Shown here piece by piece: positions 14,121 through 59,669 of a DNA stretch of 64,000 bases. A program made the position numbers and the translations under genes. Position 1 is the stretch's first letter. Every line of letters begins with the position of its first letter. The DNA comes from Hymenopellis radicata. Taxonomy: Eukaryota > Basidiomycota > Agaricomycetes > Agaricales > Physalacriaceae. Below the pieces are notes generated by a model that was given only the letters and a program-made list of their open reading frames with translations, did not search any database and was not told where the DNA came from. The stretch is taken from assembly GCA_015501595.1 (NCBI GenBank), contig JADNRX010000097.1:94627-158626 (forward strand), given 5' to 3'.

Positions 14121-17100
14121 AAGCTAAGTGTCAGAATAGATGCCAGAGTGTATAGGACGCTCAATCGATTAGGTTCACACCATACGACCGCAGTATAGGT
14201 TCTCCGGTGACAGATTACTTGCGTACTACATTGTGTGAGACATCGCAAATCCCATCACGTTCTTCACGGTCAGTCAGGATTGTCGGCCTGTGTCTTTAGC
14301 CTTCAAAAATACAATGGGAGCGACTGATTTAGCTCACAGGCTCAATTTAACCGTGTCCTAGCTGTCAATGACAGTTACTAATAGTACGCTTGTGAAGCAT
14401 AGAAGTTGCGACGGACATAGAGAAATTACTCCATGTGCACATGTAGATCAGAAAAGACATACTTGACAAGCTGTCTCGTGAATGTCCGTCGTTACCGGGT
14501 TACAGATGAGCAACTCACATAAGGAACAGAGTATCTCGCCTATACGTCTTTCCAACCAAGGAGAGCAAAAGGAGAGGCTCTCAAACGATCAAACACGTTG
14601 GATCGCGGTATTCCTTACGGGTCGTTATCCTATCGTGTCGAGAACTCTCCGGTGAGACGAAGCTGTGCGCAGTTGCTCGCGTGTTAATAAGCACTATAAG
14701 CCATTCGTGGCATACATAACATAGGAAGATATCGCTGCCATGAATGAGCTCGGATCCAATGAATCTCGAGTTGCCGGCATCCGATCCATTGCAGTACGGC
14801 AGGATGGGAGCTGAGTACTGAGTGTTCGACTCCTTTGACAGGTACTATAGAAAGAAAAGCAGTGAGAACAGGTGACCCTTAACGATAGACACTGCCAACC
14901 TAAAGTAGAGTCGGATTCGCATTTGACTATCAATCGTCGAATGAGCGTCGGTGAAGTGCTATTCCGAGCATATGCACGCCTTAACAACATGTCCAGTGTC
15001 GAAATGGAAGACACGGAAGATGTAATATAGCTTGACAGAATAGTTGAAGATCGCGTCCTTGCATCCGGCGGCGAGAATACCGTCAAGTGGGGATATGTTC
15101 ATAAAGATGTCCGCTACCTTGCCGAACTCGCGCACGGAACCATGTCCCGACTGCTAATGGAAGTTCCATCATCACCGTCGATAGGGTTTTCCAATCCAAC
15201 GTGAATATCCTCGGCGTTTCGTGTCATTTAGATGTTGGAGCACAACTCCTCTCGTACCCTCTAGTGGCAAGAAGTCGCTGCGCTCTAGATTCAACCTGGA
15301 AACACGCAGTATTAGTCAACCTATGCGTGGATCCGGAACTCAAGCGCTCAAGCTCGAAGGATCGCTACCCTCTGATCACACGACGATAGAATCGCGTGGA
15401 GCGAGCCCGTTACCGTGCAGCATATCACGGTTTTGGAAGTCGAACAACCGGCATATCGAGAAAGGCAACGTCAACGTTGAACGGGCTTTTCAAGAACCCA
15501 TCAAGTTCGGTGGCGGCGATCAGATAAGTAAGGCATTGAATCCATATGCGCGAAGCACAAGCGGTAGGGCTCGGTCGGGGCGTGTCCTTCTAATTGTAGT
15601 ATGCAATATCCTTCACTGCGAGAACTCAGTCAGACAGGAGCTACATAACAGCATGAAAATTGCAAGAAGCCATACCACATCGCGGGATCTTCCCTTATTC
15701 TGTCGCGTAATGGGAGCCGAGGAGAGAAAGTTGTTGGTTTCTGTGGTATGTTGTTGCGACTTGTTGACGAGGTTTCAAACACCGAATTCAAAGCCCGAAT
15801 ATGGCCATGACCTCCTGCACTATGTGCCAACAATTGACATCTACTGGCACACTGAAAACCCCTCGAAAGACTAGGGAGATCAAAAATAACGCAGTCGCGA
15901 CCCAGAGAACGTTCGCCGAATGTCGGAGTGGCGCACCATTCAATGTCAATCATTTTTGAAAGCGCTGCAACCATTTTTGCATTTGATTGGGTACGTACGT
16001 CTGTGAGAGTGTTCAGTTTACCTCACGTCCCACAGAAAGATACCGAGTTCTCAGTGGTGCCACTTGTCAGGCGACTGTGGCATGTCTGGTATTCAGAGTG
16101 CTGTAATAACTTCGAGGGTCAGCGCGCTAACGGCGACTATATGGGAACTTACTGCGGCTCAGAAGACTTAGCAAGACAACATATATTGTCTTCTGTTTCC
16201 ACCCTCATTGATATGCAATCGCTAAGCAATTTAACCAAGTACCCCATGAAAGGCAGGGGAAATGGAAGGAGGATTTGCCACGTGTGTGCCGCCGGCCAAC
16301 CGCCGGCAACTAGACATGTTCGACTTCAACGTTAAGGTTACAACGGTTCTGTCGCTTCTATCGTTGCTTGGATTGGCATTTCGATACAGCTTACGACACG
16401 GCGGCGTACCAGCATGGGTAAGTGCCAATCCACTTGAAGACTCCAAGGCCCAGGTCCATTTCATTGCAACTGTTGACGCTTCGACGACTTCGATTTGCAC
16501 GAGTCTGCAGCATGGCAGATTTGCGGGAGCAGAAAGGCTTTCCTTGGATCTACCGGTCCAGATTCGCAGACGAGCCTTTCTTGAGAATCGCACTGGGTTA
16601 TTCGACCGCGGACTAGCTAAGGATAACTACGACGAGCGTGCAGGTTCCTAACTGGATCTAAACCTCTTTAGTGCGTCCCAGCTGCACTCAGACATCTGGA
16701 TTCAGCTGGATTCTTGGGAAAACCGTTACCCTGTTGGGCATGCGTGCTCAAGCGCTCACCCGTCGGCGTTAGAAATCGATGACTATTCAAAGCCGCAAGA
16801 CCCCATGTGCTGACATGCATACCTCACTGTGATAATTCTGACCTGGAAATGACAAGCCGACATTTCTCGCCAATCCCATCGGTCGGCCTCGCGCCCGGGC
16901 TGTTCATTTTGTTATGGAAGAACCTTGCAGTACATACCCGGCTGGTCTAAATCCAAATCCCCCTCTTGTAGGTTGTTCTCCCGCTGGACATCGATTTCCG
17001 ACGGCTAGCATTCCGGAGGCTGAGATCGCGCATTGATGACTCTATCCCGCAGTGTGATCATCAATACACTGGTAGCCATCCCTCAATACAGGTATTCCAG

Positions 17101-17600
17101 TAAAAGCTAAAGTGAAGAGTCGAACTAATCGTAGCCATCTCCAACGTTGCAGCCACACCCAGTCCGCGGGAATGAGCGTGGCGCAGGGAGCTGATCGAGG
17201 TTCGTATATGGAGCTGATTTACTTCGAGCCATCAATTATTTCTTCCGGATCCTCGCGGGTCCCGTTTATCCGTCGTGGTACTCTGCGCTCGGATTCGCGC
17301 CCGAGCCTGGAACTTTAAAGATGGCCGACTGGGAAGATTTACACGGCGCGGTAAAGAAGGGATTATGCAGCAGGCAGGATCAACCTGGAAATGCGTGTTC
17401 CCGGCATGGCGTCGAAGAAACTGAATGGGGCAGGGCCTCGGGTTCAGCGGATCCGATGGGCATCGAAGACCATCGAAACAGAGCAAATCCGGTGGATGGG
17501 GTTATATGCCCAAAGATCTATCTCCAACTGCTCGCGCGTTGCTGCTGTTCGCGCTTGACAATCATCGAGGCACGGTGACGTCGATCCTCCCACCCGGCCA
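14121..17600. other. Long gene-poor stretch
   Basis: No frame here shows motifs or consistent splice-linked coding text. The largest ORFs (15221-15874 plus, 217 codons; 14694-15086 minus; 16262-16651 plus) have irregular composition. I see no tRNA-like fold and no long repeats. It could contain decayed copies of genes too diverged to recognise by eye. Confidence 0.45.
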
Positions 17601-17620
17601 TCTAGGGTTTTGCCGGCGCA

Positions 17621-17627
17621 TATATAT
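17621..17627 (+). promoter_or_regulatory. Candidate TATA element of the C2H2 gene
   Basis: GCATATATATGCC lies about 40 bp upstream of the ATG at 17666. The distance is short for TATA plus a 5' UTR, so its role is tentative. Confidence 0.35.
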
Positions 17628-55622: not shown

Positions 55623-55837
55623 TCAGTCCTCGTCATTACCCGCCGCGTCTACAATCTGACAGCCCGAATCGCTGCGCTGCCGCTTACTGCGATGCCTGTT
55701 CCAGACGTCGACCCAAGCCGCTGGTTGGGCCAAAGCATCCTTAAGGCTTCGCACGGGCTCGGCGCCACAGTCGTCAAGATTGTCATCCTCCCAACGCGCG
55801 CGTGCCTTTTTGGAGGTCTTATGTACCCAAGGCTCGA

Positions 55838-55845
55838 CTCTTGAT
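55838..55845 (+). repeat. Target-site duplication, left (CTCTTGAT)
   Basis: Eight bases directly before the left TIR, repeated exactly at 56982-56989. Confidence 0.9.
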
Positions 55846-56981
55846 TAGAGACCTCAACGAGTCCAACGCGAGTCAGACTCGCGACTCGTGACGTGGGTAC
55901 CCACGCAAAAAGAAGTCCAGTTCAGACTCGCGTCGGACTCGACTCGCGATGACTCGTGAGTCATCGCGAGTCCACTCGCGAGTACTCACCATGAGTCCGA
56001 GTCATCTCGGATACTCACGAGTACTCGCGAGTCCATACACCCCCAAGTATTCATGCGCAGCGAGCATCCCCGGGCAATGGCACGGGGACAGTCAGCTGGG
56101 CATGAGGGTATGGTGGGGGTGATGGTGGAAGGATGGTGGGGGTGGGGGTGGAAGGATAGTGGTGGTGGTGGAGGATGGTGGTGGTGGTGGTGGTGGTCGA
56201 CTCCGAACGACTCGTCGTCGCGTCCATCTCGCGTCATCCGCCTCATCGCATCGCATCCCCCTCCTCATCGCATCATCATCGTGTCGTCGTCGTCGTCATC
56301 CTCATCCTCATCCATTGTTGGCACCGCAATCCAGTTGGTGTCAGCAATCCAGTGATTGGATCGTGTGCTGCCCGTTTGCGGGGCTTACGCATCCTATCGA
56401 CGCCGACTCAAAGTCGAGCGTCGGTCATGTCGGCGCCGACTTGAAGTCGAGCGCCGATAGCGTCGTCGCCGACCTGAAGTCGAGCAACGAGTGTCCGAGT
56501 CGTGCTCCAGCTCTGCTGCTAGCGCAGAGCCAGCAGCAGCAGGCCCGGCACAAAGCCGAGGCCAAAGACACACCCCACAGGCTGCCTGACAATCGTCAGA
56601 GCAGCGGGGGCGACAATCGTCGCTCCCCAGGTGGTCGTGGTGGTGGTAAGAGGTACAGAGATATCACCCGATCAGACGCTTACGCGTCGCTTCGGGACTC
56701 GGCCCGAGTCGCCGGATCTGGCGAAATTGTTGCGTATAGCTCGTTTGAGCCACGCAAGGGTCCGTTTGAGTTGGCAAAAATTTGTAAATTAAGATAAATT
56801 ACATAGCTAAATATTTGCGAGTCATCATATGATGACTCGCAGTCAGCAGAGCCATACTCAGACTCGCGACCGGACTCGTGACTACGTGACTCGCGAGTCA
56901 CGCGAGTCCGAACGCCGACGTGCCCGAGGCGAGTCGAGTCACCAGATGACTCGGTGACTCGGTGACTCGTTGAGGTCTCTA
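55846..56981 (+). mobile_element. Non-autonomous hAT-type DNA transposon, 1136 bp
   Basis: Perfect 18-bp terminal inverted repeats: TAGAGACCTCAACGAGTC at 55846 and its exact complement ending at 56981. They are bounded by an exact 8-bp target duplication (CTCTTGAT). An 8-bp duplication and a TAG...CTA end are features of the hAT superfamily. Both ends are packed with subterminal GACTCG/CGAGTC motifs (about 55860-56030 and 56818-56970), the usual transposase-binding layout. No transposase (RNase H-like or hATC) is encoded. The interior carries a (GGT)n tract at 56145-56196, (TCATCG)n-like simple sequence, and an open frame to 56797. Confidence 0.9.
56401..56490 (+). repeat. Three 33-bp tandem repeats inside the transposon
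   Basis: CGCCGACTCAAAGTCGAGCG recurs at 56401, 56434 and 56467 with exact 33-bp spacing, each holding a near-palindrome GACTTGAAGTC. In the open frame they encode an 11-residue repeat (ADSKSSVGHVG, ADLKSSADSVV, ADLKSSNECPS). Confidence 0.75.
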
Positions 56982-56989
56982 CTCTTGAT
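56982..56989 (+). repeat. Target-site duplication, right (CTCTTGAT)
   Basis: Directly follows the right TIR and equals 55838-55845. Confidence 0.9.
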
Positions 56990-57768
56990 GGATACGAGAA
57001 AGGCCCTTTATAATTGGGATCCCATTCCGAATCCAAATCCGTGTCCTCTGATTCGGAGCAAGAGCGCTTGCCCAGAGGCGACGAAGAGTCGGTTATAAGA
57101 GAAGGAGGAAGATGAATTCGCTCGTACTCCTCTAGATGACCGGGGCCCCAGCTCATCAGGCGATTGGGGTAATCCTCCGGGAAACAGCCATGGTAGAAGA
57201 AAGGGATTGGCGGCAGAACTGACCACTGTACAAGTAACATAGCGTCCGCTAGGTCGGATGGAAGAAATGACCCCTGCTCCAAACATAGAAGGTCCTGGCT
57301 CTGAACGAGTAGGAAGCGGGGATTGAGAGCAAGTGTAACGGTCGGAAGTCCCGTATACGGTTTATCGAACCGAGTGATGGTGTGGGTGTCGGGATGTCGG
57401 ACGAATATGGCTTCCTCAAATGTAAGCGGGATGAGCATGTACTCATAGTTGCCGGTAAGCGGGAGTATCTGAAGTTCAGTTATACAGCTGATTTCTTCGA
57501 CAATACGCATCAGGTCGTCGTGAGTTGAATGTTTGCGCAGTGGAGGCTGATGTTAACTCACGTGCCCTTACAGTTGGGCGGATCATACGCCACAATCCCA
57601 CGAATTTCGGAGCGGCGCTCTCCGTGTACACCAAGAAGCTGTACAAAATATAACTGTTATCGCAATATATGTTACGGTGTCCGTTCCATGTCATGCAGAG
57701 GGAGTGCGTCATCCCGACTACTTTGTCGGGTCAATGAGACAGTAGAATCCGGCGTTCCTTCACAACCT

Positions 57769-59567
57769 TCAGTGGATCATTTGAACTTGGTAGAAATCTC
57801 TTACCGTTCTGACAATGCACGCACTGTACCGTCGGTTAGCACTCCAGTAAACTGCAGACCATGACGGAACACTCGCCATTTGTGGCAGGACATCATGCCC
57901 CCAAATGAGAGTAAAGAGTTTCCATAGAGCCGACACCATCGCAAACGTGGAAACAAACACGCTTGCAGCTGCAGACGCCGTGGGCTTCTGGCGAAACACA
58001 GGCCTCAAATATATCACAGAGGGCACCCGGACATCCAGCGCCTCGTCCCAGCCATACGACAAATAACTCTCCGTCGCTCTATCCGCCCTCGTGATGTTCG
58101 CATACGAATCAAAAGGTCGTGGCATGATCCCCCCAGATAGCACCGTCGCAGGCACCGCCGTCCCATTGATCTGCGCGAATCTCGAGAAGAGCGGTACAGC
58201 CGAGATACTCCTGTGATACGCCGCGGCGGAGGTGTACATCTGGTTTTCGCGGATGACGCCCAGGTCGAGCCGGATGAGGTGGTATATGGCCTGAAACGCG
58301 TTCTCTAGGACGTTGGCTGGGACTTGTAGGTCGGATGATGGGGGTAGGATGTCTACGATATTCAGTTGGCCTGTGAGAGAGCTTTTATGTGAGGAGGACA
58401 AAGGTTGAATTCGAAACTGTGCATACCGTATGTGCCATTAGCATAATACACTTGGATGTACGTGCCAAAGAACTGGGCTGTCTCGTTGTCGCACGAGAGA
58501 TGGCCGATGACATCTTCTCCATACGAGTGTGCACTGCCGCGATTGGATTCTGAGGACGGGGTGCCGCCGCAGACGCAGCACGGATAAACGGAGAGATCCA
58601 TTCCTGTAGCGTTTTGCGGTGTGTCTGGTCCGTGCCAGACGTCGGACGAGAGTACTACACTGATCACAAACGTTCCATGAGAGAGAGGCAAACATCGCGA
58701 CCGGGAATACACACGTTTCGTCGCTCCAGCCGTATTCCTATCTGAGAGGTTGGTGTATTGAATTAATCGACAAGCAGAGAATCCAAAGCTCGTACAGCTC
58801 CTAGAAAACCGGCCGTCCTGTCTTTTAGAGCTGCGTGGTTGAGCTCCATGGTCATGGTGTACATAATGGGAAGCCAACATCCGATAGACGCCTACAACAG
58901 CATTTAACGCGTCCCTTCAGCACTAGGAGGAATATGTGACGATTACCGATATCGAAACCCTCTCCTCCTTTCTTACAGACAACGTCAAGTTGGCCTGGAA
59001 AGAGCACCCAATGTCGGAAACGACGCGACAGCTTTACTGGGCAGCTCGTTTTGATAAGCCGTCGATATTTGGTAATCGAACGCGGACAAGTTCGTTTGTA
59101 TCGTGTCCCCAATCTTGAACGACTGCATAAAATGGCCCGCAGAATGGCGTAGCGAAGAGGGCACGAGACTACTGAAGGGGAGTGCGTTAGTTGTGTCATT
59201 GGGTGTGTATGTGAACTCTTGGACAACGTCATATGCCGCCAGCGGGACTAAAAGAATTATGAAAGTGTCAAGAGAAAGTTGAATGCAACGGCACACACTA
59301 TTGACAAAGGCCAAAAGGATTGTCAGGCTTACGAAGACGCCACAGACGATTGGCGTAGTCCATCGTCCAGGATACGCTATGCATCATTTGAAATGAGCCT
59401 ATGAAACCCAACAGACGACGAGGACACGCACGCCGCTGAAGATTGTATCCCAGTCTAAAGTTGAGGACGCCATTCACTAAATCCCGCGGTTGGGGCATGT
59501 CATTGAGGAAGAAGGAAACCAAAAGGTCAGGCCAGACTTGCACAAGACAACTCGAGTTGCAAGTCAC
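57769..59567 (-). CDS. Membrane protein with large N-glycosylated ectodomain
   Basis: Several minus-strand exons. The N-terminal part reads NGVLNFRLGYNLQRRACPRR and SFQMMHSVSWTMDYANRLW, then a span VSLTILLAFVNSVC and DTFIILLVPLAAYDVVQEFT. The long middle is rich in N-x-S/T sites (NDTT, NATG, NETA, NGTY, NGTA, NITR) and Cys (YPCCVCGG), as in an exported domain: GTFVISVVLSSDVWHGPDTP, AQFFGTYIQVYYANGTYGQL, DLGVIRENQMYTSAAAYHRS. Near the C-terminus is a second span, SVFVSTFAMVSALWKLFTLI. The join GGCACATACG|GCCAACTG (intron about 58373-58426) is exact. Others near 58890-59000 and 59310-59340 are less certain. An uncharacterised Agaricomycete membrane protein; function unknown. Confidence 0.6.
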
Positions 59568-59669
59568 AATCTACTGGATCCGGAAGGGATTGTTGATGAA
59601 TGAATGCATTGGCGGACGAACGTTCGTCGATGATGGCTATCACGTTCGAGAACACACACTGTGGGAAAG

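What the first reader, a model, noticed from the sequence alone, without database searches (positions are those of the whole stretch)
55838..56989. Complete non-autonomous hAT element caught inside a coding exon
Perfect 18-bp TIRs, exact 8-bp target duplication and an open reading frame that resumes in phase on both sides (PFSYPSRV | EPWVHKTSK) show a clean and probably recent insertion. The element encodes no transposase, so an active autonomous partner may exist in this genome. The undecayed TIRs make it a useful marker of current mobility.
Basis: partly seen in the sequence, partly recalled or inferred. Interest (0 to 1): 0.75.

Follow-up and report, generated by a model that had tools for sequence, protein, structure and literature searches.

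The report
Fungal cut-and-paste transposon inside a gene
A 1.1-kilobase piece of jumping DNA of the well-known hAT class sits inside a mushroom gene; it belongs to a large family in that genome, which also carries related transposase genes that could have moved it, so it is a clear but ordinary case.

Summary
Confirmed. Window 55846-56981 is a complete 1,136-bp element with perfect 18-bp inverted ends (TAGAGACCTCAACGAGTC) and an exact 8-bp target duplication (CTCTTGAT). Empty sites prove the insertion: a paralogue on contig C996 has one CTCTTGAT and no insert, and all 10 homologous proteins found run straight through. The genome is almost certainly Hymenopellis radicata (contig-length match). 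It holds 456 exact copies of the end (666 at up to 2 mismatches). Of 22 short elements read (963-1207 bp, this one included), 17 have exact 8-bp duplications. Four other full-length copies are 99% identical to this one, which supports recent movement; perfect ends alone do not, because copies near 80% identity have them too. The element encodes no transposase. Related hAT transposase genes exist in the genome; in five places where I read the 3' end, 16-17 of 18 TIR bases agree, and one place gives an open 833-aa gene model. Activity is not shown, and the transposase serving this exact subfamily was not read. The host copy seems to lack the N-terminal third of its relatives. Side result: subfamilies carry different subterminal repeat units (GACTCG or GATCCG), the same at both ends. 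New member of a known kind.

The parts
55838..55845 (.). target-site duplication, left copy (CTCTTGAT)
   Evidence: a single copy stands in the empty site on C996
55846..55863 (+). terminal inverted repeat, left, TAGAGACCTCAACGAGTC
   Evidence: 456 exact matches in the genome
55864..56063 (.). subterminal array, left 200 bp: 10 GACTCG/CGAGTC units, palindromic ACTCGCGAGT copies
56110..56197 (.). TGG-rich tract inside the element
56397..56485 (.). 33-bp tandem repeat, 2.7 copies, inside the element
56570..56621 (.). segment that resembles the 5' leader of the C799 transposase gene (element positions 725-776; 84% over 37 bp and 77% over 53 bp)
56764..56963 (.). subterminal array, right 200 bp: 11 GACTCG/CGAGTC units
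56964..56981 (-). terminal inverted repeat, right
56982..56989 (.). target-site duplication, right copy (CTCTTGAT)
56990..57552 (-). host reading frame upstream of the insertion (stop-to-stop limit at 57552; true exon start not determined)
   Evidence: homologues align from 57495 or 57471 downwards
55623..55837 (-). host reading frame downstream of the insertion, to the stop

Best explanation
This is a non-autonomous hAT DNA transposon. A hAT transposase made elsewhere in the same genome recognises the 18-bp TIRs and (inferred) the arrays of GACTCG/CGAGTC units behind them, cuts the element out, and joins it to a staggered 8-bp cut, here CTCTTGAT; host repair then duplicates those 8 bp. Shown: TIRs, duplication, empty site, family size, near-identical sister copies, and related transposase genes ending in near-identical TIRs. 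Inferred: which transposase moved it, that the subterminal units are its binding sites, and that any copy is active now. The insertion cuts off the last ~73 codons of the host frame and puts ~102 codons read from the element in their place.
For: Perfect TIRs and exact 8-bp duplication. Empty site on C996 with one CTCTTGAT, three more paralogous places that run through the junction, 10 of 10 homologous proteins uninterrupted. 456 exact and 666 near TIR matches in the genome, reversed-pattern control 0 and 1. Exact 8-bp duplications at 21 of 27 elements read, one mismatch at 3, none at 3. Duplications prefer T at position 2 and A at position 7, 24 of 48, p = 0.0002 against 0.25. Four full-length sister copies at 99%. 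A transposase gene with the hATC domain (PF05699, E 6.9e-10) about 230 bp inside a TIR that differs by one base, with a weak Hermes match, E 0.0098.
Against: No transposase copy was read with this element's exact TIR or its GACTCG arrays; the match of this element to C799 beyond the TIR is weak (73% over 55 bp, E 0.002; 84% over 37 bp). The C799 copy shows no 5' TIR up to C799:16500, so it may be incomplete. The splice model is from my own script. Three of 27 elements show no matching 8-bp duplication. Movement itself was not observed.
Confidence: 0.94

Rival explanations
1. The family is a fossil: the insertion is real, but no transposase able to move it remains, so it is not a marker of current mobility.
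For: Most copies listed are well below 99% identical to this one. No complete transposase element with both TIRs was read; C505 is interrupted by a copy of this family, C80 is in pieces, and matches on C504, C643, C752, C895, C280 and others contain stops, some of which may lie in introns.
Against: Four full-length copies at 99% and an open 833-aa model on C799.
Confidence: 0.3
2. The 8-bp-duplication element belongs to another superfamily that also makes 8-bp duplications, such as P or Merlin (superfamily properties recalled).
For: The duplication length alone does not decide.
Against: Transposase-bearing relatives with near-identical TIRs carry the hATC domain; the T2/A7 preference fits hAT (the hAT preference is recalled).
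Confidence: 0.02
3. The 1.1 kb is an intron or an original part of the gene.
For: The frame stays open for about 102 codons into the element on the minus strand.
Against: Full-length near-identical copies elsewhere; 10 of 10 homologous proteins and 4 of 4 paralogous places lack it (the two sets overlap at least at C996/P0008); one CTCTTGAT in the empty site.
Confidence: 0.01

Closest known systems
MarorhAT-10 with the non-autonomous MarorhAT-4, -11 and -12 of Marasmius oreades (PMC9674265; passages and section 7 read)
   Same: An Agaricales hAT system with short non-autonomous elements whose TIRs resemble those of a longer element that carries a hAT transposase domain.
   Different: There the transposase element is 3,396 bp, the short ones 597-631 bp, and insertions and excisions were seen; here the short ones are about 1.1 kb and movement is inferred. 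TIR sequences were not compared.
Hermes (hAT, solved structures 6dww, 4d1q, 2bw3, 8edg)
   Same: C-terminal part of the C799 transposase model matches weakly (residues 755-808, E 0.0098).
   Different: No significant sequence match outside that part.
Ac/Ds of maize (recalled)
   Same: Non-autonomous element moved in trans, short TIRs, subterminal motif arrays, 8-bp duplications.
   Different: Sequence unrelated as far as tested; activity not shown here.
MITEs (recalled definition)
   Same: Non-coding, TIR-bounded, many copies.
   Different: Longer, 963-1207 bp in the 22 read, with an interior that varies between subfamilies.

Membership tests
hAT superfamily | 8-bp target-site duplication (hAT elements usually generate 8 bp: passage of PMC12730594) | tested here: met
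   exact at this element and at 21 of 27 elements read; 3 with one mismatch, 3 without
hAT superfamily | duplication preference nTnnnnAn (recalled) | tested here: met
   T2 or A7 in 24 of 48 positions of the 24 duplications used, p = 0.0002 against 0.25; the 3 elements without a duplication were left out
hAT superfamily | short TIR beginning (C/T)A-G-N-G (recalled) | tested here: met
   TAGAG..., 18 bp
hAT superfamily | transposase with hATC dimerisation domain bounded by the same TIR | tested here: inconclusive
   met for relatives at one end: C799, C505, C80, C895, C280 share 16-17 of 18 TIR bases; no transposase copy with both ends or with this exact TIR was read
hAT superfamily | catalytic DDE residues and strand-transfer activity | not tested
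   no alignment to catalytic residues and no assay was made
non-autonomous element | no transposase of its own | tested here: met
   tblastn of the C799 model finds nothing in the window (E 0.01) or in 22 elements (E 0.1)
non-autonomous element | moved in trans by a partner | not testable with these tools
   sister copies and partner genes are circumstantial
MITE | usually under ~800 bp and homogeneous (recalled) | tested here: not met
   963-1207 bp in 22 elements; identities of matching pieces to this copy range from about 68 to 92%

The most novel reading that the evidence does not exclude
Within one genome, one hAT lineage has split into subfamilies that keep the TIR but have replaced the subterminal repeat unit at both ends at once (GACTCG in one class, GATCCG in another, with mixed intermediates), in step with diverging transposases, so that the genome records a transposase changing its DNA-recognition word.
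Probability: 0.2. Interest if true: 0.5.

Novelty: new member of a known kind. Interest (0 to 1): 0.25.

Why it matters
It is a cleanly proven insertion, with an empty paralogous site and candidate helper genes in the same assembly, so mobility of a mushroom hAT family could be tested by simple PCR in other strains. The repeat units of the subfamilies offer a small natural series for asking how transposases and their end arrays change together. Otherwise it is routine.

Tried and rejected
Long TIR pairs as autonomous copies. Five pairs of 3,274-8,557 bp (L062-L066) looked like candidates. They are copies of this family broken up by other sequence: the L065 insert holds HTH_Tnp_Tc5 and DDE_1 domains, the L064 insert has CATCAGGAAACGG at both ends, the L065, L066 and L062 inserts begin TAGTGA, TAGACC and TAGAGC, and L062 is a more complex nest; tblastn with the C799 transposase found nothing in the inserts at E 1. 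Rejected as autonomous copies.

hATC loci. None of the 30 loci fetched (L031-L060) has the TIR at up to 4 mismatches. Of 20 further stretches, L100 (C799) has it at 1 mismatch; L089 and L091 share a looser sequence at 4. The 70 hATC matches were thus not all read.

My first impression of an old family came, whose sample missed the closest copies; one search then showed four at 99%. In one search, 40 of 591 candidates were scored, 40 of 164, so both lists are partial.

Excess change inside the repeat units was not found. Between the class-majority sequences of the GACTCG and GATCCG classes, 26 of 59 unit positions differ against 66 of 113 elsewhere on one side, and 26 of 59 against 52 of 102 on the other, with the TIR at 1 of 18 and 0 of 18. 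The difference in unit density stands, but the arrays are too diverged to show unit-by-unit replacement. This counts against the novel reading.

Literature; none of the listed titles and abstract openings describes this family in Hymenopellis or Oudemansiella (one search returned no paper). The library holds open-licence papers only.

Full report
What is there. Such a pair is not expected by chance: 100 shuffles of the window gave on average 0.07 matches at up to three mismatches and never two. Inside each end lie about 200 bp rich in GACTCG/CGAGTC (10 and 11 units); the middle has a TGG-rich tract and a 33-bp tandem repeat.

The insertion is proven. With the flanks joined, the minus-strand frame runs to a stop about 73 codons past the junction. 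In the same genome, C996:16353-17095 matches the joined flanks at 91% in one piece (query 40-800), and a 151-bp read of its junction shows one CTCTTGAT and four base differences. The other three places found, C968, C1129 and C564 (71-74% identical), also run through the junction. All 10 homologous proteins found are uninterrupted there: five named Mucidula mucida, three Hymenopellis radicata, two without a name. These sets overlap: contig C996 is 193,660 bases long, the length of the contig of H. radicata protein P0008. From that I infer that the genome is Hymenopellis radicata; a genome of that species, strain IJFM A160, is described in PMC8480192 (passages seen).

The host. The homologues form a multi-copy family; the one Mucidula protein scanned, P0001, has no Pfam match at E 0.1, and P0009 only a sub-threshold one. 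Tblastn with five homologues matches the window from residue 105 of P0001 (93 of P0005, 153 of P0009) onwards and nothing before, so the interrupted copy is probably incomplete at its N-terminus, or its first exons are too diverged. In the occupied copy the frame continues for about 102 codons inside the element. What the host gene does is unknown.

The family. The end occurs 456 times exactly and 666 times at up to two mismatches in 75.5 Mb, against 0 and 1 for the reversed control. I read 22 short elements (963-1207 bp, this one included) and five long broken ones. Of these 27, 21 have exact 8-bp duplications, three differ at one base and three do not match. The 24 duplications used prefer T at position 2 and A at position 7 (24 of 48, p = 0.0002). 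Matching pieces of the 21 other short elements are about 68-92% identical to this one. A search with the whole element found 23 other places that cover it from end to end, four of them at 99%, one at 98% and one at 97%, the rest at 81-93% (40 of 591 candidates scored). None of the four 99% contigs appears among the matches to this element's flanks, so they are not alleles of this insertion. This copy belongs to a young branch of an older family.

The helper. The genome holds 70 hATC matches. On contig C799 a transposase gene ends about 230 bp inside a TIR that differs from this element's by one base. My splice model has 10 introns of 46-61 bases and 833 aa without stops; it has a Dimer_Tnp_hAT domain at E 6.9e-10, a relative in Antrodiella citrinella (36% identity over 99% of the part searched; one of 5 proteins at E 0.001) and a weak match to Hermes (E 0.0098). 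No 5' TIR was found up to C799:16500, so that copy may be incomplete. The last 478 bp of the C799 copy match down to the first base of the TIR in five more transposase-bearing places: C505 (94%), C80 (91%), C895 and two on C280 (73%); C140 matches from base 24. The TIRs read are TAGAGACCTCAACGACTC (C799, C505), TAGAGACCTCAACAACTC (C80) and TAGAGACCTCAACGAGTA (C895 and one C280 copy). This element shares with C799 the TIR, 73% over the first 55 bp (E 0.002), and two short matches to the leader upstream of the transposase gene, 84% over 37 bp and 77% over 53 bp, in the same order and orientation. The transposase that serves the GACTCG class was not read. The C504 copy is the best candidate, by pattern position only: a TIR-plus-array pattern matches 245 bp from its hATC end, and the place is missing from the list of ends with a GGATC or GGGTC first unit (100 of 101 listed).

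Repeat units. Of 22 elements, 16 have 7-12 GACTCG/CGAGTC units and 0-1 GGATC/GATCC in each 200-bp end; four have 6-10 GGATC/GATCC and 0-2 of the other; two are mixed. In the 20 unmixed elements both ends agree, while the middles do not differ much (0-4 and 0-3). The C799 end has 6 GGATC/GATCC and 2 GACTCG/CGAGTC. Genome-wide, 240 ends fit a pattern that allows either kind, 101 of them with a GGATC or GGGTC first unit. Change was not concentrated in the units, so a switch of recognition word is a hypothesis, not a finding.

How it works, and what it is. The best reading is a non-autonomous hAT element, cut and pasted by a transposase supplied in trans. TIRs, duplication, empty site and sister copies are shown; the transposase responsible, binding to the arrays and present activity are inferred. 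The closest described system that I read about is MarorhAT-10 and its non-autonomous relatives in Marasmius oreades (PMC9674265, section 7), where movement was observed. The present case looks like the same kind of system in another mushroom, and I score it as a new member of a known kind.

Noticed in passing
window 58438-59570 (-) and G000:C799:9800-10928 (-): Reading frames next to the host gene in the window have close relatives beside the C799 transposase copy (seen by eye); why the two loci share a neighbour gene is not known.
   Followed up: no
G000:C505:14943-19314: A relative of this element (93% identical, 16333-17471) lies between two exon matches of a C799-like transposase gene (16235-16336 and 17472-17624), so the family has apparently inserted into its own kind of helper gene.
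   Followed up: partly
L062, L063, L064, L065, L066: Copies of this family are landing sites for other elements: five different inserts, one with Tc5-type HTH and DDE_1 domains.
   Followed up: partly
L046:157-666 (G000:C631): A hATC locus whose 3' flank resembles the interior of this family (70-85% over pieces) but has other end sequences, starting TAGACCTGGGCAAGAGTG, and CACCCGGGTG-type repeats.
   Followed up: partly
P0008 (H. radicata, probably contig C996): The annotated protein of the empty-site paralogue seems to run through a stretch in a shifted frame compared with its relatives, so that copy may be damaged or mis-annotated.
   Followed up: no
G000:C280:62175-63341, 66356-67522 and G000:C895:14002-15587: Three very similar transposase copies, two of them about 4.2 kb apart on one contig.
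   Followed up: no
L089:807 and L091:761: Two other hATC loci share the sequence TAGAGATGTCCACGAGTG, 4 mismatches from this TIR, possibly the end of another hAT family.
   Followed up: no
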